Assembly: GCA_028749115.1 (NCBI GenBank) | Contig: JAQURD010000003.1 | Span: forward strand, 1-64,000 | Source of the DNA: Acidobacteriota bacterium | GTDB lineage: Bacteria > Acidobacteriota > Aminicenantia > Aminicenantales > Saccharicenantaceae | Direction of reading: 5' to 3' | DNA length: 64,000 nt | In this document: positions 39,974 through 48,469 of the stretch, one piece after another | How the letters are laid out: each line of letters begins with the position of its first letter | Position numbering within the stretch: the stretch's first letter is position 1 | The notes under the pieces: model-generated | Databases searched by the model: none | Told to the model about the DNA's origin: nothing | Seen by the model: only the letters and a program-made list of their open reading frames with translations | Program-made: the position numbers and the translations under genes

Positions 39974-40282
39974 ATGTTTGGCAGTATCGGTTTACCCGAG
40001 CTAATTATAATTTTTGTTATCGCCCTGCTTATTTTTGGACCTAAAAAGCTACCTGAGGTTGGTAAATCAGTCGGCAAAGCTATCAAAGAGTTTAAGAAAG
40101 CTTCGGATGAACTAAGAACTAAAGTTGAAGATGAAATTAACGCGACGGAAATCAAAACCGAGATCAAAGAAGTCCAGAAGGATTTGGCCAGTGTGACGAC
40201 TGATCTTAATGAACTTCAAGATTCAATAAAAAAGGATATAAAAGCCGATGAGCCCGAGGAAGGCCACAAAGTCTCCGGATGA
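39974..40282 (+). CDS. tatA: Twin-arginine translocase subunit TatA
   Basis: A 102-residue TatA/B-family protein. MFGSIGLPELIIIFVIALLIFGPKKLPEVGKSVGK is the classic short membrane helix, hinge FGPKKLP and amphipathic helix. The charged tail includes coiled-coil-like EVQKDLASVTTDLNELQDS. It forms the export pore for folded proteins with TatC. No separate TatB is seen, so a bifunctional TatA is likely. It overlaps tatC by 35 bases. Confidence 0.95.
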   Translation: MFGSIGLPELIIIFVIALLIFGPKKLPEVGKSVGKAIKEFKKASDELRTKVEDEINATEIKTEIKEVQKDLASVTTDLNELQDSIKKDIKADEPEEGHKVSG

Positions 40283-41054
40283 AATGACCTTCCTTGAACA
40301 TCTGGAAGACTTGAGGAAAAGGCTTTTTTATTCGGCCATTGCCATTCTGCTGGCCGTTGCTCCTGGCTGGATATTCAGCCGGCAGCTTTATGAAATTCTG
40401 GCCAGGCCAGTTACTCAGTATTTGCCCGAGGGAACCAAACTGGCCTATACTACGCTGACCGCTCCCTTCATGCTCTATATGAAAATTTCTTTTCTGGCCG
40501 CTCTGTTCTTTACTTCACCTTTCGTTTTTTTCCAGCTCTGGATGTTTGTGGCTCCGGGCCTGTATCAAAAAGAAAAGAAATATGTTATTCCCTTTGTCTT
40601 TTTCACTACTTTTTTCTTTATTCTGGGAGCACTTTTTGGCTATTTCGTCGTTTTCCCCTGGGCCTGCCGCTTTTTCGTCAATCTGGCCAAGGGTTTCCAG
40701 CCGGTTATAACTGTTGACCAGTATTTCAGCTTTTCCATCAAAGTCCTGCTGGGCATCGCTCTAATTTTCGAATTACCAACACTGGTCTATTTTCTGGCCA
40801 GGATGGGCTTGATTACCGCCCGCTGGATGACAAAAAGTTTTCCCTATGCGGTTTTAGCTGCTTTTATTATTTCAGCCATCATCACCCCCACTCCAGATGT
40901 TATTACTCAAAGTGTCGTGGCTGTTCCCATGATTGTTCTTTATGGCTTGAGTATTCTAATTGCTCTGGTCGTCGGGCGTAACAAGGAAAAGCAAAGGCAG
41001 AAAATAGCTTTAGAGACAGTTAATGAAAATGGAAAAGAGCACCTGGCTGGCTGA
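40248..41054 (+). CDS. tatC: Twin-arginine translocase subunit TatC
   Basis: A 268-residue membrane protein with six helices. MTFLEHLEDLRKRLFYS is the conserved N-terminal signal-binding region, and FFTSPFVFFQLWMFVAPGLYQKEKKY is the conserved loop before helix 3. The ATG at 40248 lies inside tatA; the ATG at 40284, two bases after the tatA stop, is equally possible and would begin MTFLEHLEDL. It recognises twin-arginine signal peptides. Confidence 0.95.
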   Translation: MSPRKATKSPDEMTFLEHLEDLRKRLFYSAIAILLAVAPGWIFSRQLYEILARPVTQYLPEGTKLAYTTLTAPFMLYMKISFLAALFFTSPFVFFQLWMFVAPGLYQKEKKYVIPFVFFTTFFFILGALFGYFVVFPWACRFFVNLAKGFQPVITVDQYFSFSIKVLLGIALIFELPTLVYFLARMGLITARWMTKSFPYAVLAAFIISAIITPTPDVITQSVVAVPMIVLYGLSILIALVVGRNKEKQRQKIALETVNENGKEHLAG

Positions 41055-41358: not shown

Positions 41359-41913
41359 ATGGAAAGAGACATTAAGATTAGTGATTTTCGTTTAATTGGA
41401 TTAACGGGAACAAATGGGGCAGGTAAAGGAGAGGTTGCCGCCTTTTATCAGAAAAAGGGCTACAGCTGCATTTCACTCTCTGACGTGATCAGAGAAGAGC
41501 TCGAAAGCCGTTCGCTTCCGCCTAGCCGGGAGAATTTAATTGCCTGCGGGAATGAACTTAGAGAAAAATTCGGGGCCGACATTCTGGCCCACCGGGCAGC
41601 CGCCAGGATTTCGGGTCCAGCAGTCATTGACAGTATCCGCCATCCGGCCGAAATTGAATATCTCCGCAGCCTGGGGAGTTTTATTCTCATCGCCGTTGAT
41701 GCCCCGGTGGAGATGAGGTTTAACCGGGTAAAAAAAAGGGGGCGGGACGAATCAGCTTCAAGCCTGGAGGAATTTATTCAGCAGGAAAACCGGGAAAAAG
41801 CCAGCGGGGGTAATAACCAGCAGCTTGACCGCTGTTTCGCTTTAGCTGACCTCATAATCATCAATGACGGCAGCTTAGCTGAATTGCATCAAAAACTGGA
41901 AAAATTAGGATGA
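41359..41913 (+). CDS. P-loop nucleotide/dephospho-CoA kinase-like protein (UPF0200-like)
   Basis: A 184-residue small P-loop kinase. Walker A is LTGTNGAGKGEVAAF; SLSDVIREELESRSLPPSRENLIACGNELREKFG resembles the UPF0200/archaeal dephospho-CoA-kinase-like group (DV.REE...G..PT.ENL...A..LR). The DSIRHPAEIEYLRSL segment and the arginine-rich lid FNRVKKRGRDE fit a nucleoside monophosphate kinase fold. Its stop overlaps the start of the dCMP deaminase gene by four bases. Yeast dCMP deaminase has an N-terminal P-loop kinase-like part, so this pair resembles a split version of that enzyme. Substrate unknown; a deoxynucleotide is inferred. Confidence 0.7.
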   Translation: MERDIKISDFRLIGLTGTNGAGKGEVAAFYQKKGYSCISLSDVIREELESRSLPPSRENLIACGNELREKFGADILAHRAAARISGPAVIDSIRHPAEIEYLRSLGSFILIAVDAPVEMRFNRVKKRGRDESASSLEEFIQQENREKASGGNNQQLDRCFALADLIIINDGSLAELHQKLEKLG

Positions 41914-42470
41914 ATGACAAGCCTGGCCAAATCAACCGACAGAACAAACGAATTTCTAAGGATGAATATTATCTGGGTATAGCCCGCGAGGTGTCCAGAA
42001 GAAGCACCTGCTTCCGCCGGGCCATCGGGGCCATTATTGTCCGCGATGACCAGATTATTTCTACTGGCTATGTCGGGGCTCCCCGAAAAACCAAAGATAG
42101 CCTGGAACACGGCTTCTGCCTCCGCGACCAATTGAATATTCCTCATGGCCAGAGATATGAGCTCTGCCGCTCAGTCCATGCCGAACAGAATGCCATTATC
42201 AATGCGTCCCGAGCCGGAGTCAGCCTGCTGGGCGGTGATATGTTTATCTATGGCAGCGATCCCAAAACCGGCCAGCCGATAGATGCCTTTCCCTGCTTCA
42301 TCTGTAAAAAGATGATCATCAACGCCGGGCTCAACCGGGTAGTCTGCTCGACGGCCGACAGCCGGTGGAAAATATTTTCTGTAGGCCGCTGGGCCCGCGA
42401 CTGGCGGGAAAATGATATTCTCGACGATACGCATCAATATGGAAAGACAGGTGAAGGAAATCATGACTAA
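41910..42470 (+). CDS. dCMP deaminase-family protein
   Basis: A 186-residue zinc-dependent deaminase of the dCMP/ComEB type. The zinc and proton-shuttle motif is SVHAEQNAI, and the second zinc motif is PCFICKKM. An internal element with H and Cys residues (DSLEHGFCLRD...YELCRSVHAE) corresponds to the structural zinc insertion of dCMP deaminases. It converts dCMP to dUMP, the thymidylate precursor. Coupled to the kinase-like gene upstream (four-base overlap) and to the SIS gene downstream (eight-base overlap). Confidence 0.85.
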   Translation: MNDKPGQINRQNKRISKDEYYLGIAREVSRRSTCFRRAIGAIIVRDDQIISTGYVGAPRKTKDSLEHGFCLRDQLNIPHGQRYELCRSVHAEQNAIINASRAGVSLLGGDMFIYGSDPKTGQPIDAFPCFICKKMIINAGLNRVVCSTADSRWKIFSVGRWARDWRENDILDDTHQYGKTGEGNHD

Positions 42471-44658
42471 GAATCGACCAGGCTTTAAACTTTTCAGGCG
42501 GGTTGTCTGGTTAGCTTTAATCCCTACTATTTTAGTAGTATTTATGGCCGCTCAGGAAACGCCAAGGCAGGAGGCGGCTAAAAGCCAGTCAGCCAGCCTG
42601 CTGGAGCTGCTGGGAATTGAAGTTTCGCCTGAATCCCTTGATTATCTTCAGGACAAAACTCAATTTCAATTGCATACCCTGCTAACCGAGCAGCGACATC
42701 CTAAGACCTGGAATCTAAGCGAAAAAATCAAAACGGATACGGCCGGCAGCCTCCACCTGCTTTTTTCGGTGGATGAGGACATCGTGGCTAAGCTCAATGA
42801 ATTAGCCGCCTCACCGGAAGTCCTCAAGCAACTATCCTCCGAAATTAAAAAGACCATTCTTAGCGGTCATAAGATTTATTTCTATGGCTGCGGGGCTACT
42901 GGCCGGCTGGCCAAACAAATGGAAAGTGCTTTCTGGCGCCCCTTCTGGAATTCTTTGAAGGCAGATAAAAACCTCTGGCCAAGAATCGAAAAATATTTGG
43001 GCCCGGGAATCAGCGAGAAGCTAATAGGGGAAATGACCGGTGGCGACCGGGCTCTGATCTCTTCTCTTGAAGGATTTGAAGACCTGCAGTTAATCGGCCG
43101 CCTCCAGCTAAAAGACCGGGGAATAGAAAAGGGAGATCTGGTTGTGGCCGTGACTGAAGGTGGTGAAACCTCCTCGGTCATCGGGACAATCCTGGCCGCC
43201 CTGGATGATTGGCGTGAGGCACCTGATTATTCAGTAGCGGAGAGCCGGAAGAAGCTCTATTTCGTCTATAATAACCCTGATGATAAATTGCGTCCTTTTG
43301 AAAGAAGCCGGTTAGTAATAGATGAACCGGGCATCACTAAAATCAACCTAACGACCGGCCCCATGGCCATCACCGGTTCGACCAGGATGCAGGCCACCAC
43401 GATTGAAACCTATGTTCTTGGAGTCGCACTGCAAGCCGCGGTTTATGATCTACTGAAGGATTGTCTGGACTTGAAGGAACTGCCGAAGGCTGGCTTTAGT
43501 CATCCTTATTTAATTACTGACAATCTGAAAGCTCTGGCCCCGGTGCTCACCAGGATAAATCAAGCTGTTCCGGCTATTGCTTCCTGGACAGATCTCGAAT
43601 CCAGTACTTACGAGGGCAGGCACTTTTCTACCTATTTCGCTCAAAAGGCCATGATTACTGTTTTTATTGATAGTACGGAGAGGAGCCCAACCTTCAGGCT
43701 CTACCCGCTTGATACAGTTGATCTGCCCAAACGGCGGTGCTGGATCCAGGTCTGGACGTCTGCCGCCAATGGTCGGCAGGCCTGGCTGTCTTTTCTTGGC
43801 CGCCCTTTCCACGGCTTGAGTGAGGATTTCTACCGGCCGGATTTTGAAGAAAAAATAGACGATCCCTATCTCAAGCAGACTGCCCTGGAAAGCCTTAAGA
43901 AGGCCGGTCAGGAGCAGCAGGATTTATATGATTTCTCTTTCTCAGAATTTAATCTTAAAAAAAGAGGACCTCAGCCAGGAGACACAGGCGTAATCGTTAG
44001 TTTAAGCCCCGAGGAAAATTATCTTCTGACCAGTGCTTCCCCTTCCAGCCAATTTGTCCGGCTATTCCTCGACAAAAAGGCTTCAGTCGTAGCTGTGAAT
44101 GTCACTGGCCTCGATGAGAAAAAAATAACTCAAGGCGAGAAGAGAATAAACAATTTTTATCAGATAAAAGATTTAATATCCGGGCAGAAATTCCTTCAGG
44201 TCTGGCTGCCGGTTGATTCGGCCAATGATCCTTTCCAGCTCAGACAGAACATGGCCCTAAAAATGGTTCTTAACGCTCACTCGACAGCCGTCATGGCGAA
44301 ACTTGGCCGGATTGTTGGTAACACCATGACTAATGTCAGCCCGAGTAATTTAAAATTAATCGGCCGGGCCACCTATCTGATTCAGTCCCATGTTAACGAT
44401 TGCTTGAAAAAGCCTGAGTGGATAAAAAAGTACGGACGGCGTGAAGCTATCAGTTATGGTGAGGCCAATGCCGTCTTGTTTGACTCGATCACTTACCTCA
44501 AAGACAAAGAAAATGTGGCCGGCCAGACAGCCGAAGTTGCACTGTCGATTATCCGAGTTCTGGAATCCTTGAGGCAGAAAAGAGGATTGACCAACGATGA
44601 GGCTCTGGCTATTCTTCAGCAACAGGGCCTGGCCAATTATCTAACAGGAATAAACTGA
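42463..44658 (+). CDS. Exported or membrane-anchored two-SIS-domain protein (GCKR/MurQ-like)
   Basis: About 731 residues from the ATG at 42463, chosen for the AAGGA ribosome binding site five bases upstream. Residues 1-34 (KNRPGFKLFRRVVWLALIPT...VVFMAAQ) look like a signal peptide or anchor. The first SIS domain has YFYGCGATGRLAKQMESAFW, MTGGDRALISSLEGFED and GDLVVAVTEGGETSSVIGT, aligning with the GAG/GGE/ASGRT motifs of MurQ and the glucokinase regulator GCKR. The second half contains another SIS-like unit around SPSNLKLIGRATYLIQ. Sugar phosphates are the usual ligands, which makes the N-terminal export signal unexpected. It overlaps the dCMP deaminase gene by eight bases. Function not established. 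Confidence 0.7.
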   Translation: MTKNRPGFKLFRRVVWLALIPTILVVFMAAQETPRQEAAKSQSASLLELLGIEVSPESLDYLQDKTQFQLHTLLTEQRHPKTWNLSEKIKTDTAGSLHLLFSVDEDIVAKLNELAASPEVLKQLSSEIKKTILSGHKIYFYGCGATGRLAKQMESAFWRPFWNSLKADKNLWPRIEKYLGPGISEKLIGEMTGGDRALISSLEGFEDLQLIGRLQLKDRGIEKGDLVVAVTEGGETSSVIGTILAALDDWREAPDYSVAESRKKLYFVYNNPDDKLRPFERSRLVIDEPGITKINLTTGPMAITGSTRMQATTIETYVLGVALQAAVYDLLKDCLDLKELPKAGFSHPYLITDNLKALAPVLTRINQAVPAIASWTDLESSTYEGRHFSTYFAQKAMITVFIDSTERSPTFRLYPLDTVDLPKRRCWIQVWTSAANGRQAWLSFLGRPFHGLSEDFYRPDFEEKIDDPYLKQTALESLKKAGQEQQDLYDFSFSEFNLKKRGPQPGDTGVIVSLSPEENYLLTSASPSSQFVRLFLDKKASVVAVNVTGLDEKKITQGEKRINNFYQIKDLISGQKFLQVWLPVDSANDPFQLRQNMALKMVLNAHSTAVMAKLGRIVGNTMTNVSPSNLKLIGRATYLIQSHVNDCLKKPEWIKKYGRREAISYGEANAVLFDSITYLKDKENVAGQTAEVALSIIRVLESLRQKRGLTNDEALAILQQQGLANYLTGIN

Positions 44659-44667
44659 ACTGGTTTT

Positions 44668-45771
44668 TTAAACCCGCTGGCTGTCAGCCACAAAACATGG
44701 CGGTTGCGGCCGGCTTCTCTTGCGTCTGACCGTCTTCACCTGTGGATAAACAAAAAGTTCACCGGCATAATTTCTGAGGACAACTTTCTCATCTGAAATT
44801 GACTGGACATATTCAGGGATGAGAGGAATTTTACCACCGCCCCCAGGAGCATCAATAACATATTGAGGCACAGCCAGGCCGGAAGTCCAGCCTCTTAAGC
44901 CCTGGTAAATTTCCAGTCCTTTTTCAACTGTCGTCCGGAAGTGATCCGTCCCACGGACGTAATCAGCCTGATAAATATAATATGGCCTGACTCTGACTGT
45001 CAGGAGCTTCTGCATCAGCTTTCTCATCGTCTCAACATTATCATTAACCCCTTTAAGAAGAACAGTCTGATTGCCGAGAGGAATACCGGCATTAGCCAGA
45101 AGGTTAAGTGCCCGGGCTGCTTCCGGTGTAACTTCGTCCGGATGATTGAAATGAACATTCATATAGAGTGGATGATATTTTTTTAGCCTGTCTGCTAATT
45201 TTTCAGTGATTCTCTGCGGGAGATAGCATGGCATCCTTGTTCCAATTCTAATAATCTCGACGTGAGGGATAGACCTGACCTGACTCAGGATGCTTTCCAG
45301 CTTCTCGTCGTTGAGAATCAGCGGGTCGCCGCCAGAAACAATCACATCGCGGACTTCCGGGTGATCCTTTATGTAATTTATCCCATCTTCAATGTAACGC
45401 GGATTAATTTTGGTGATATCACCGACCTTTCTTTTCCTGGTGCAGAACCGGCAGTAAGAAGCACAATTATGGGCTACCAGGAAAAGAACCCGGTCTGGAT
45501 AGCGATGAACAATACTTGGTACTGGTGAATCGAGATCTTCCTCTAAGGGATCATCGTCGCCAGAGTTTTCAGCCAGTTCGGCCAGATCAGGCACGACCTG
45601 CCGGTAAATCGGATCCCCTTTTCTTTTGATTAAATTGGCATAATAAGGAGTAATCTGGATTTTAAAAGCCTGACTTATTTTTCTAACCTCCTCTACATCC
45701 AGGCAGAAATGTTCTGCTATCTCTTCTGGAGTTCTTAAACTATCGCGCAAAAGTTGTTGCCAGTCGTCCAT
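44668..45771 (-). CDS. kamA: KamA-family aminomutase (lysine 2,3-aminomutase-like)
   Basis: A 367-residue radical SAM, PLP-dependent aminomutase. The 4Fe-4S motif is CASYCRFCTRKRKVG. GGDPLILND and RIGTRMPCYLPQRIT follow. VIDAPGGGGKIPLIPEYVQS contains the PLP-lysine region, and VVLRNYAGELFVYPQ closes the protein. The Asp in VIDAPGG and the overall C-terminus fit lysine (or glutamate) 2,3-aminomutase more than EpmB, though the protein is shorter than clostridial KamA (416). Its stop faces that of the SIS gene. A GNAT gene lies 12 bases upstream, a pairing seen in beta-lysine acetylation pathways. Confidence 0.85.
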   Translation of the reverse strand: MDDWQQLLRDSLRTPEEIAEHFCLDVEEVRKISQAFKIQITPYYANLIKRKGDPIYRQVVPDLAELAENSGDDDPLEEDLDSPVPSIVHRYPDRVLFLVAHNCASYCRFCTRKRKVGDITKINPRYIEDGINYIKDHPEVRDVIVSGGDPLILNDEKLESILSQVRSIPHVEIIRIGTRMPCYLPQRITEKLADRLKKYHPLYMNVHFNHPDEVTPEAARALNLLANAGIPLGNQTVLLKGVNDNVETMRKLMQKLLTVRVRPYYIYQADYVRGTDHFRTTVEKGLEIYQGLRGWTSGLAVPQYVIDAPGGGGKIPLIPEYVQSISDEKVVLRNYAGELFVYPQVKTVRRKRSRPQPPCFVADSQRV

Positions 45772-45783
45772 GTTCCCCTTATT

Positions 45784-46266
45784 TCACTCCTTTTCCCTGA
45801 GATGTTTTCCGAAAATAACCCGGTCATCTCCTGGCCGGTAAAAGTCAGGAATATGGGCCATTTCGGCATAACCTAACTTTTGATAAAATTTCCTGGTCGG
45901 CAGGTATTTGGGCTGTGAAGAAGTTTCAATTATAATGAGCCTGCCGTCTTTTTTTCTAACCTCATTTTCCAGATAGTGAACAAGTAGCTGACCATAGCCC
46001 TGGCCCTGAACTTCGGGAGAAACCGCTATCCAGTAAAGATCCCAGGTGCCTTCGGTCAGCGGGGTTGGTCCATAGGTCATATAGCCAACAACCCGGCCAG
46101 CCTCATCCTCTACCACAACAATAAAGTAGTCCTGTTGATCTGGCTGGTTGAGATAAATATCAATCAGCTCCTCGGCCACTTTTATTTCATCCGGAAGAAA
46201 AAAGTGCGTGGCTTTAATCAGCCTGACAACCTGTTCACGGTCAGTGTCTATCATTGGCCGTAGCAT
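45784..46266 (-). CDS. GNAT-family N-acetyltransferase
   Basis: A 160-residue single GNAT domain. It starts with LRPMIDTDREQVVRLI. The acetyl-CoA-binding loop is VSPEVQGQGYGQLLVHYLE (Q/RxxGxG/A), and the C-terminal strand contains TRKFYQKLGYAEMAHIPDFYRPGDDRVIFGKHL, typical of small-molecule amine acetyltransferases. It lies between kamA and two ATP-grasp ligases. Acetylation of beta-lysine or of a ligase product is a reasonable guess; the dedicated beta-lysine acetyltransferase AblB is larger, so direct homology is not claimed. Overlaps the upstream ligase gene by 26 bases. Confidence 0.85.
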   Translation of the reverse strand: MLRPMIDTDREQVVRLIKATHFFLPDEIKVAEELIDIYLNQPDQQDYFIVVVEDEAGRVVGYMTYGPTPLTEGTWDLYWIAVSPEVQGQGYGQLLVHYLENEVRKKDGRLIIIETSSQPKYLPTRKFYQKLGYAEMAHIPDFYRPGDDRVIFGKHLREKE

Positions 46267-47272
46267 CGCTTTCCTTCCTTTTCAAAGCGTTGGTAATCAA
46301 CAGCTTCCAGAAATCAGCATAATTTATGCCGGCTGCCTTAAGTGCCCGGGCATAACCAGCGTCAAGGCTGACATCCGGATTGGGATTCACTTCGAGAATA
46401 AATAATTCACCCCGGTCGTTCATCCTGAAATCTATCCGGGCATAGTCACGGCAGCCCATAATTTTAAAAGCATTAATGGCCAGAGCCTGCAACCTGGCTT
46501 CCAGACCGGCCTCGATCGGCGCCGGGCAAACCGGACAGGTGGTTTGATATAAAAGGTGCTCTGGATACCACTTGGCCTCATAACTGCAAATATGCGGATA
46601 GCCGGCGGGCATGGTAGAAAAGTCTATTTCTGAGACAGGCAGTGGCCTTGGCTCGCCATCATCGAGAATTGCCACGTTAAACTCCCGGCCATCAATGAAT
46701 TCCTCAACAATGGCCGGCTGCTCATATGCCTCAATAACTTTTTTAATCTGCTCGGCCAGAGCCTGCCGATCATAAGCGACAGATTCTGGATGAACACCAA
46801 GGCTGGCATCCTCAGAGTTAGGCTTAATAATCATTGGAAAATGGAGTTCAACAATTTCATCGGCGCAAGTAATCAACTGGCTGGCAGCTACCGGCAGGTT
46901 AAAAGAACTGAGGATCGCTTTGGCCTGATGCTTATCCTGGCAGAGAGCTAAGGTTCTGGCTCCATTACCAGTGAAGGGAATATGCAGAACTTCCATCACG
47001 GCCGCGACATTAGATTCCCAGTGAGGATTGCCGAAAAAACCTTCACATAGATTGATAATCACCTGCACATTGAGTTCCTTAATTTTCCGCAGAAAATTAA
47101 ACATGCTGCGTTGAAGTGGAATCAGAACAGCTTCAACACTCGATTTAATAAGGGTCTCACAGACGATCTCAGCTACTTTAGCAACAGAGTCCTCAGATAC
47201 TTTTTCCCGGCGGTATATAAATGGCTCGTGAGTATTAAAAGCCACCCCGACTTTCAGGTTATCAGCCGCCAT
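46241..47272 (-). CDS. ATP-grasp ligase 1 (D-Ala-D-Ala ligase-like)
   Basis: About 343 residues from the ATG at 47272 (MAADNLKVGVAFN), chosen because a GGGGG site lies just before it and the ORF-track start 13 codons earlier reads as non-family sequence. ATP-grasp motifs are MIIKPNSEDASLGV, VEEFIDGREFNVAIL and the metal/phosphate site ARIDFRMNDRGELFILEVNPNPDVS. It lacks the full substrate motifs of housekeeping Ddl. LCEGFFGNPHWESNVAAVMEVLHIPFTGNG is the family N-terminal helix region. It is a tandem paralogue of the next gene and overlaps it by 11 bases. Peptide-bond formation with an unusual amino acid is inferred. Confidence 0.8.
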   Translation of the reverse strand: MAADNLKVGVAFNTHEPFIYRREKVSEDSVAKVAEIVCETLIKSSVEAVLIPLQRSMFNFLRKIKELNVQVIINLCEGFFGNPHWESNVAAVMEVLHIPFTGNGARTLALCQDKHQAKAILSSFNLPVAASQLITCADEIVELHFPMIIKPNSEDASLGVHPESVAYDRQALAEQIKKVIEAYEQPAIVEEFIDGREFNVAILDDGEPRPLPVSEIDFSTMPAGYPHICSYEAKWYPEHLLYQTTCPVCPAPIEAGLEARLQALAINAFKIMGCRDYARIDFRMNDRGELFILEVNPNPDVSLDAGYARALKAAGINYADFWKLLITNALKRKESDATANDRH

Positions 47273-48380
47273 GGTTGCCCCCAGCACTCCGGGAAAAGCG
47301 GCGAGTCTCATTGTCAGCTATCTTCTGAAGCAAACCATAGCGCCTTGAGGCCTCTTCCACCACTCTATTTATAAGCTGTTCATAAGCATAACCGGCTGCC
47401 CGGGCAGCTTTAGGCAAACAGGAGTTATCCTCGGGCTTAGGCAGAATCCCGGGCAGAGGATTTATCTCAATGATATTTGGCTCACCATTCTCATCCAGTC
47501 TGACATCTATCCTGGCCCAGTCTCTTATCCGGAAGAGCCGGCAGGTTTTAACGATAACCTGTTTTATTTTTTGCTCAAGGTCCGAAGATATATCGGCCGG
47601 ACAGCAGAAGATATCAAGAGGTTTATCAGGTGTGTCCCAGACCCATTTAGCTTCATAGGAATAAATCGGCCTGGCTCCGGCCGGGAGCTGACTGTGGTCT
47701 ATTTCAACAATGGGTAAAATTTCGAGCCGGGGATAATTGCCCAGAACTCCTACCGTGAATTCCCGCCCGCTGAGAAATCTTTCAACAATAGCTGGCTGTT
47801 TATATAATTCTTTTACCTCGTAAATTCTTAGCTTTAACTCCTCAAGGCTAAAAACAACAGAATTATTTTTTATGCCCTTGCTCGAGCCCTCATATAATGG
47901 TTTGACAATACATGGATAGCTCAAGTCAATCGGCAGATCATCTTCTTCGTCCACCACCCAGAAAGCCGGCGTCGGAAGGCCATGGTAAGCCATGATTTCT
48001 TTCGCCCTGGCTTTGTCCAGGCAGAGTCCAAGCGTTAGCGGATCAGAGCCGGTATAAGGAATGTTTAAAATTTCACAAATGGTCGGGACATGAGATTCAC
48101 GATTGGGACCGAATAACCTTTCGGCCATATTAAAAACAAGGTCCGGTTTTTCTTCAAGCAGCTTGATATAGGCTGACTCATCAGCTTCAATCGGAATTAC
48201 CTGGTGATACCTTTCGAGCGCTTGCTCGACGGCTTTGATCGTCTCGTCACTGTCGCCTTCAGCAAGCAAGTCAGGTGGAGGTTCTTCGCCCTCATCCATT
48301 TTTTCATCAAAAAGGCAGGAAGCGAGTGCCCGGGCCATGCCCTGTTTCGAACTGAAAAGTAATGCTAATTTCATTTTCAT
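47262..48380 (-). CDS. ATP-grasp ligase 2 (D-Ala-D-Ala ligase-like)
   Basis: About 372 residues from the ATG at 48380 (MKMKLALLFSSKQG); neither this nor the second ATG six bases later has a clear ribosome binding site. Core motifs are CIVKPLYEGSSKGI, VERFLSGREFTVGVL and ARIDVRLDENGEPNIIEINPLPGILP, the last with the usual metal-binding Glu/Asn and an INPLPG ending as in Ddl. Residues 30-60 carry an acidic, proline-containing insertion (DEGEEPPPDLLAEGDSDE). First gene of the ligase2-ligase1-GNAT-kamA run. An AT-rich region with ATACAAC-type sequence upstream is the likely promoter. Confidence 0.8.
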   Translation of the reverse strand: MKMKLALLFSSKQGMARALASCLFDEKMDEGEEPPPDLLAEGDSDETIKAVEQALERYHQVIPIEADESAYIKLLEEKPDLVFNMAERLFGPNRESHVPTICEILNIPYTGSDPLTLGLCLDKARAKEIMAYHGLPTPAFWVVDEEDDLPIDLSYPCIVKPLYEGSSKGIKNNSVVFSLEELKLRIYEVKELYKQPAIVERFLSGREFTVGVLGNYPRLEILPIVEIDHSQLPAGARPIYSYEAKWVWDTPDKPLDIFCCPADISSDLEQKIKQVIVKTCRLFRIRDWARIDVRLDENGEPNIIEINPLPGILPKPEDNSCLPKAARAAGYAYEQLINRVVEEASRRYGLLQKIADNETRRFSRSAGGNHGG

Positions 48381-48469
48381 TTGTATATATACAACAATTT
48401 TTGTTGATGTCAATAGTTTTTTTCATATTTGTATACTTTTTTTTGTATTTTTATTTGAAAAAGACACTA

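What the first reader, a model, noticed from the sequence alone, without database searches (positions are those of the whole stretch)
42463..44658. GCKR/MurQ-like double-SIS protein with an export signal
SIS-domain proteins act on cytoplasmic sugar phosphates, yet this one starts with a basic stretch and a hydrophobic segment ending in FMAAQ, like a signal peptide. It may work on periplasmic muropeptides, or be anchored with its SIS domains inside. An RR pair before the hydrophobic part, with tatAC genes close by, also raises the Tat route, though the motif is incomplete.
Basis: partly seen in the sequence, partly recalled or inferred. Interest (0 to 1): 0.55.

Follow-up and report, generated by a model that had tools for sequence, protein, structure and literature searches.

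The report
Exported MurQ/GKRP-like double-SIS sugar protein
A whole lineage of uncultured bacteria (Aminicenantes) sends a relative of a cytoplasmic cell-wall-sugar enzyme out through the inner membrane, in one branch encoded directly beside a cell-wall-cutting enzyme, which suggests that it processes cell-wall sugar outside the cytoplasm, a step for which no enzyme is known there.

Summary
ORF 42463-44658 (+) encodes 731 aa of the MurQ/glucokinase-regulatory-protein (GKRP) type with two SIS domains; GKRP is the best fold match. The basic stretch plus hydrophobic segment (residues 1-30) is real: every homologue of its clade with an intact 5' end has one, positive before and neutral or negative after, hence N-in/C-out, i.e. 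exported. The Tat idea fails: no homologue has a Tat motif, and 85%-identical relatives lack the RR. One genome carries both forms. Predicted ligand-site residues are invariant across both. In one branch of the exported clade the next gene, overlapping or within 4 bases, is NamZ (exo-muramidase); none of the relatives searched has MurQ (60) or AnmK (30) above cut-off. Best reading: a periplasm-facing muramic-sugar enzyme, probably lactyl-etherase-like, acting on MurNAc released by NamZ. Location is well supported by sequence; the reaction is inferred. The MurQ catalytic Glu83 position is not kept and MurQ's cut-offs are not met, so it is not filed as MurQ.

The parts
42463..44658 (+). Exported MurQ/GKRP-like double-SIS protein, 731 aa (whole gene with stop)
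42454..42458 (+). AAGGA, ribosome-binding-like site 4 nt before the ATG
   Evidence: Sequence itself
42463..42501 (+). Basic n-region, residues 1-13 (net +5)
42502..42552 (+). Hydrophobic segment, residues 14-30, ending FMAA before Q31; signal peptide or signal anchor
   Evidence: KD15 peak 2.70 against 1.55 elsewhere; kept in the whole clade
42841..43452 (+). SIS domain 1 (about residues 127-330), with G-C-G-A-T146, E206, T231-EGGETSS, G-S-T307-R308
   Evidence: Pfam GKRP_SIS_N 127-243; alignment to GKRP and MurQ; conservation
43627..44211 (+). SIS domain 2 (about residues 389-583) with invariant D403, E406, R407
   Evidence: Model secondary structure and GKRP fold match; conservation
44239..44649 (+). 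C-terminal helices (residues 593-729), MurQ/GKRP-like, with N629, K631, L632, R635 matching GKRP Lid residues N512, K514, L515, R518
41910..42470 (+). Upstream dCMP-deaminase-like gene, overlaps the SIS gene by 8 nt (conserved neighbour)
39974..41054 (+). tatA and tatC, conserved neighbours; no sign that the SIS protein uses them

Best explanation
A Sec-exported, periplasm-facing (anchored or cleaved) double-SIS protein related to cytoplasmic members of the MurQ/GKRP superfamily, which kept its whole predicted binding site. Inferred mechanism: exported NamZ releases MurNAc from cell-wall fragments; the SIS pair binds the sugar at the site of T146, E206, T231, T307, R308 and K631 and removes the 3-lactyl group (lactyl-etherase-like); the resulting GlcNAc is imported by a sodium:solute symporter, phosphorylated and passed to NagA and NagB. 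Shown by sequence: export signal, its conservation over the clade, site conservation, neighbour genes, absence of MurQ and AnmK above cut-off, presence of NagA and NagB. Inferred: substrate, chemistry, order of steps.
For: Conserved N-terminal segment with inside-positive charge. Clade of 52 with the segment, sister clade of 13 mostly without; same-genome pair L093/L131. Fewer cysteines in exported members, 3.9 against 6.5. Ligand-site residues of GKRP and MurQ Glu114 invariant. NamZ directly downstream in 13 exported loci of one branch, overlaps of 4-23 nt or gaps of 3-4 nt, and adjacent in L104 and L117. MurQ above cut-off in 0 of 60 relatives, AnmK in 0 of 30, controls positive. Own genome: NamZ near NagB and an SSF symporter, NagA elsewhere. 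Unexported relatives sit before an SSF symporter, the family class of the Tannerella MurNAc importer, whose operon also holds MurQ (PMC5790795).
Against: MurQ Glu83 is not kept (A/T/S/G at 156). SIS proteins normally bind phosphosugars, and the phosphate-binding positions of GKRP (Ser to Thr, Lys) are kept. In the window's own genus NamZ is not next to the gene. NamZ is common in the phylum (196 of 247), so co-occurrence alone is weak. The 13 NamZ-adjacent loci may be one event. No biochemical data.
Confidence: 0.42

Rival explanations
1. Exported, but acting on a true sugar phosphate that reaches the periplasm, for example MurNAc-6-phosphate units freed from Gram-positive walls (wall polymers attach at C6 of MurNAc) or other phosphosugars of dead cells.
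For: GKRP phosphate-site positions S110, S179, S258, K514 are kept as T146, T231, T307, K631.
Against: The gene neighbours concern unphosphorylated sugars (NamZ, symporter); the loop TEGGETSS carries two acids, E232 and E235.
Confidence: 0.2
2. Exported binding or sensing protein without catalysis, like GKRP: it binds a muramic sugar or other sugar and controls a partner in the envelope.
For: GKRP is the best fold match; the Glu83 position is lost, as in a protein that only binds.
Against: 111 columns invariant over exported, unexported and chlamydial rows, acidic residues E154, E206, E232, E235, E406 among them, fit an enzyme better; no constant partner gene in all loci.
Confidence: 0.2
3. 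Exported isomerase, epimerase or dehydratase of amino sugars in the periplasm (compare NagS, a MurQ relative that dehydrates GlcNAc-6P), not an etherase.
For: SIS proteins catalyse several such reactions through a ring-opened sugar; NagS shows that MurQ relatives changed reaction (PMC12680351).
Against: Would not by itself explain growth-type salvage with NamZ and missing MurQ.
Confidence: 0.12
4. The segment does not export the SIS domains: a start too far upstream, or an anchor with the domains inside.
For: Unexported homologues start near residue 40; the cleavage motif is not enriched over shuffles (49 of 53 against 42.7 expected).
Against: In-frame segment kept in the whole clade, ribosome-binding-like site at 42463, inside-positive charge in 47 of 53, fewer cysteines.
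Confidence: 0.06

Closest known systems
[quoted passage not shown]
   Same: Homologous SIS1 core and C-terminal helix block; Glu114 position kept (E206); neighbours of muramic-sugar salvage
   Different: Two SIS domains in one chain, export signal, scores far below MurQ cut-offs, Glu83 position not kept
Glucokinase regulatory protein (GKRP/GCKR)
   Same: Double-SIS plus C-terminal helices, best fold match, fructose-phosphate-site residues kept
   Different: Bacterial, exported, no glucokinase partner evident; V180 and S183 positions are E232 and E235
NagS, GlcNAc-6P dehydratase of Streptomyces (PMC12680351)
   Same: MurQ-related SIS protein with its own reaction
   Different: Single SIS, cytoplasmic; direct sequence comparison not made here
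Tannerella murT-murK-murQ operon (PMC5790795)
   Same: Sodium symporter family gene beside a MurQ-type gene, as in the unexported clade
   Different: No kinase gene directly beside the present genes; exported clade has NamZ and not the symporter as neighbour
Unidentified MurNAc lactyl etherase of mycobacteria (PMC6572805, PMC13041923)
   Same: The same kind of missing step: MurNAc use without MurQ, enzyme and compartment unknown
   Different: Not searched for this family in mycobacteria; no claim that the enzyme is shared

Membership tests
MurQ (MurNAc-6P etherase) | Score over the curated cut-off (TIGR00274 302 bits, PRK05441 168 bits) | tested here: not met
   78.8 and 97.5 bits
MurQ (MurNAc-6P etherase) | Catalytic Glu83 (E. 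coli numbering, from memory of Hadi et al. 2008) | tested here: not met
   Aligned position 156 is T, S, A or G in all exported rows
MurQ (MurNAc-6P etherase) | Glu114 | tested here: met
   E206 invariant
MurQ (MurNAc-6P etherase) | Lactate release from MurNAc-6P | not testable with these tools
   Needs an assay
GKRP | GKRP_SIS_N domain over the gathering score | tested here: met
   31.2 against 27 bits
GKRP | Fructose-phosphate-site residues (list in PMC4109836) | tested here: met
   E153, S258, R259, N512, K514, L515, R518 kept as E206, T307, R308, N629, K631, L632, R635; S179 as T231; V180 and S183 replaced by Glu; E348 and H351 not mapped with certainty
GKRP | Binds and inhibits glucokinase | not testable with these tools
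   -
Sec signal peptide or signal anchor | Basic n-region and hydrophobic h-region, positive side in | tested here: met
Sec signal peptide or signal anchor | Signal-peptidase site | tested here: inconclusive
   Motif not enriched over shuffles
Tat substrate | Twin-arginine motif RRx[FLIVM] | tested here: not met
   0 of 53; RR lost in 85% identical relatives

The most novel reading that the evidence does not exclude
The first extracytoplasmic muramic-acid lactyl etherase: a MurQ/GKRP-type SIS protein that works outside the cytoplasm on unphosphorylated MurNAc released by NamZ, so that GlcNAc and lactate, not MurNAc, are imported.
Probability: 0.28. Interest if true: 0.8.

Novelty: new variant of a known kind. 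Interest (0 to 1): 0.6.

Why it matters
SIS proteins are known as cytoplasmic phosphosugar proteins, and MurQ was described in 2019 as the only known lactyl etherase, with all growth-supporting MurNAc recovery routes ending at cytoplasmic MurQ (PMC6572805). Mycobacteria cleave MurNAc by an unidentified etherase whose compartment is unknown (PMC13041923). A lineage-wide exported relative in genomes without recognisable MurQ gives a concrete, testable candidate for that kind of step, and the paired exported and unexported clades give a natural control.

Tried and rejected
Tat export: rejected (no motif in any of 53). Mis-called start: rejected. Anchoring with domains inside: disfavoured by charge. 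A phosphate-free site argued from the Gly at 233: dropped, because GKRP has Gly there too (G181) and still binds fructose phosphates. Matching compartments of SIS and NamZ as a general rule: dropped, since genomes with unexported SIS also carry NamZ with exported-type N-termini; only the adjacent pair in L117 lacks a signal on both. NamZ co-occurrence as evidence: weak, NamZ is in 196 of 247 phylum genomes. Cleavage-site motif: not enriched. Net charge of the body differs between the groups (p 4e-5) but varies widely and rows are related. Papers on bacterial GKRP relatives: none found in the held library. The MurNAc etherase review PMC11131651 is not held.

Full report
What is there. The ORF 42463-44658 (+) gives 731 aa. 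The ATG at 42463 has AAGGA four bases upstream, and the gene overlaps the end of a deaminase-like gene by 8 nt. Pfam gives GKRP_SIS_N above cut-off; the MurQ models of NCBIfam match significantly but far below their cut-offs. HMMER against the PDB finds MurQ and GKRP. An AlphaFold2 model (mean pLDDT 74) has GKRP as its seven best PDB matches, then GlmS-type and MurQ structures.

The organism. The nearest named homologues are Candidatus Saccharicenans and other Candidatus Aminicenantes. Of 60 relatives, 55 have the protein; the five without it may be gaps in assemblies.

The N-terminus. Residues 1-13 carry +5, residues 14-30 are the hydrophobic core, and residues 29-58 carry -3. The hydropathy peak is 2.70, against 1.55 at most elsewhere in the protein; 23 of 20000 shuffles reach it. 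Homologues across the order have such a segment despite little sequence identity there, followed by a strongly conserved body from about residue 46. The sequence of the segment drifts while its character stays, as in signal peptides. Of 53 scored N-termini (four of them chlamydial), 47 are more positive before than after the core. RR occurs in 12 and a Tat motif in none; the 85% identical relatives lack the RR. The tatAC genes are part of a neighbourhood conserved in the clade. Whether the signal is cleaved is open: the cleavage motif is not enriched over shuffles.

Homologues without the segment. They exist: L037, L041, L107-L109, L111-L113, L116, L117, L127, L129, L130 and L133 begin within a few residues of residue 40, most with an in-frame stop just upstream. 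On a tree of the body only, the segment-bearing Aminicenantes plus L104 form one clade (52 rows, support 100; three of these, L099, L100 and L102, are cut at their 5' end by the contig and were not seen), 13 rows form another (support 100; nine without the segment, four with unclear starts), and four chlamydial homologues with signal-like N-termini a third. Labels of unclear rows were given by eye, and whether the exported and chlamydial groups share one origin is not resolved (support 77). The complete genome CP070825.1 has one of each: L093 with the segment and L131 without, 52% identical over 561 positions. The exported members have fewer cysteines (3.9 against 6.5 per protein, Mann-Whitney p 5e-7, rows not independent).

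The binding site. Residues of GKRP around the bound fructose phosphate are listed in PMC4109836. Through the HMMER alignment they map to E206 (E153), T231 (S179), T307 (S258), R308 (R259), N629 (N512), K631 (K514), L632 (L515) and R635 (R518), and by motif T146 (S110). All but T231 (one Ser in an unexported row) are invariant over 52 exported, 21 unexported or unclear and 4 chlamydial rows. E206 also matches MurQ Glu114. The MurQ Glu83 position is A, T, S or G in exported rows; an invariant E154 lies two residues earlier. The loop TEGGETSS has two acids where GKRP has V180 and S183. So export came without change of the site, which argues for the same or a similar ligand inside and outside; the exact chemistry cannot be read off.

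Neighbours. In 13 exported loci of one branch the next gene on the same strand is NamZ (PF07075 and PF20732), with overlaps of 4-23 nt or gaps of 3-4 nt; in the distant L104 it lies convergent, 9 nt away; in the unexported L117 it lies 467 nt downstream. Unexported or unclear forms are followed by an SSF symporter in 11 loci. A sodium symporter family protein imports MurNAc in Tannerella, in an operon with MurK and MurQ (PMC5790795). L115 and L121 have an amidohydrolase gene nearby. In the window's own genome NamZ (C27) has a lipoprotein-like N-terminus and lies a few kb from NagB, an SSF symporter and a kinase-like protein without a Pfam match; NagA is present. MurQ above cut-off: 0 of 60 relatives, with 6 of 14 control genomes positive. 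AnmK: 0 of 30, with 5 of 14 controls positive.

Reading. A muramic-sugar SIS protein is sent across the inner membrane in the Aminicenantes lineage and keeps its site. Its neighbours, and the lack of recognisable MurQ and AnmK, suggest that MurNAc freed by NamZ is handled outside and that GlcNAc is imported. This is inference: no assay exists, Glu83 is missing, and a phosphosugar ligand or a non-catalytic role remain possible. The literature held here names the missing step: MurQ as the only known lactyl etherase (2019), and an unidentified one in mycobacteria whose compartment is unknown (PMC6572805, PMC13041923).

Verdict. Observation confirmed; export well supported by sequence (about 0.9); a muramic-sugar role likely (about 0.6); a lactyl-etherase-like reaction plausible (about 0.4).

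Noticed in passing
window 44668-46266 (-): A lysine 2,3-aminomutase-like gene followed by a GNAT acetyltransferase gene, the arrangement of ablA-ablB (N-epsilon-acetyl-beta-lysine, a compatible solute); recognised by eye, not tested.
   Followed up: no
window 46241-48413 (-): Two neighbouring paralogous ATP-grasp genes resembling D-Ala-D-Ala ligases, conserved beside the SIS gene in many relatives (cluster c6).
   Followed up: no
L145:1076-2476: A 467-aa protein that looks like a sugar kinase beside NagB and an SSF symporter has no Pfam match at all; a candidate GlcNAc kinase.
   Followed up: partly
L114, L118, L120, L123 (Chlamydiae MAGs): Chlamydial homologues of the SIS protein have signal-peptide-like N-termini (for example ending PLIAQAHP) and form their own clade, so export may have arisen or been kept outside Aminicenantes too.
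   Followed up: partly
L097 and G014:C117:20222-22356: The homologue is split between two frames in these assemblies (frameshift or assembly error).
   Followed up: no
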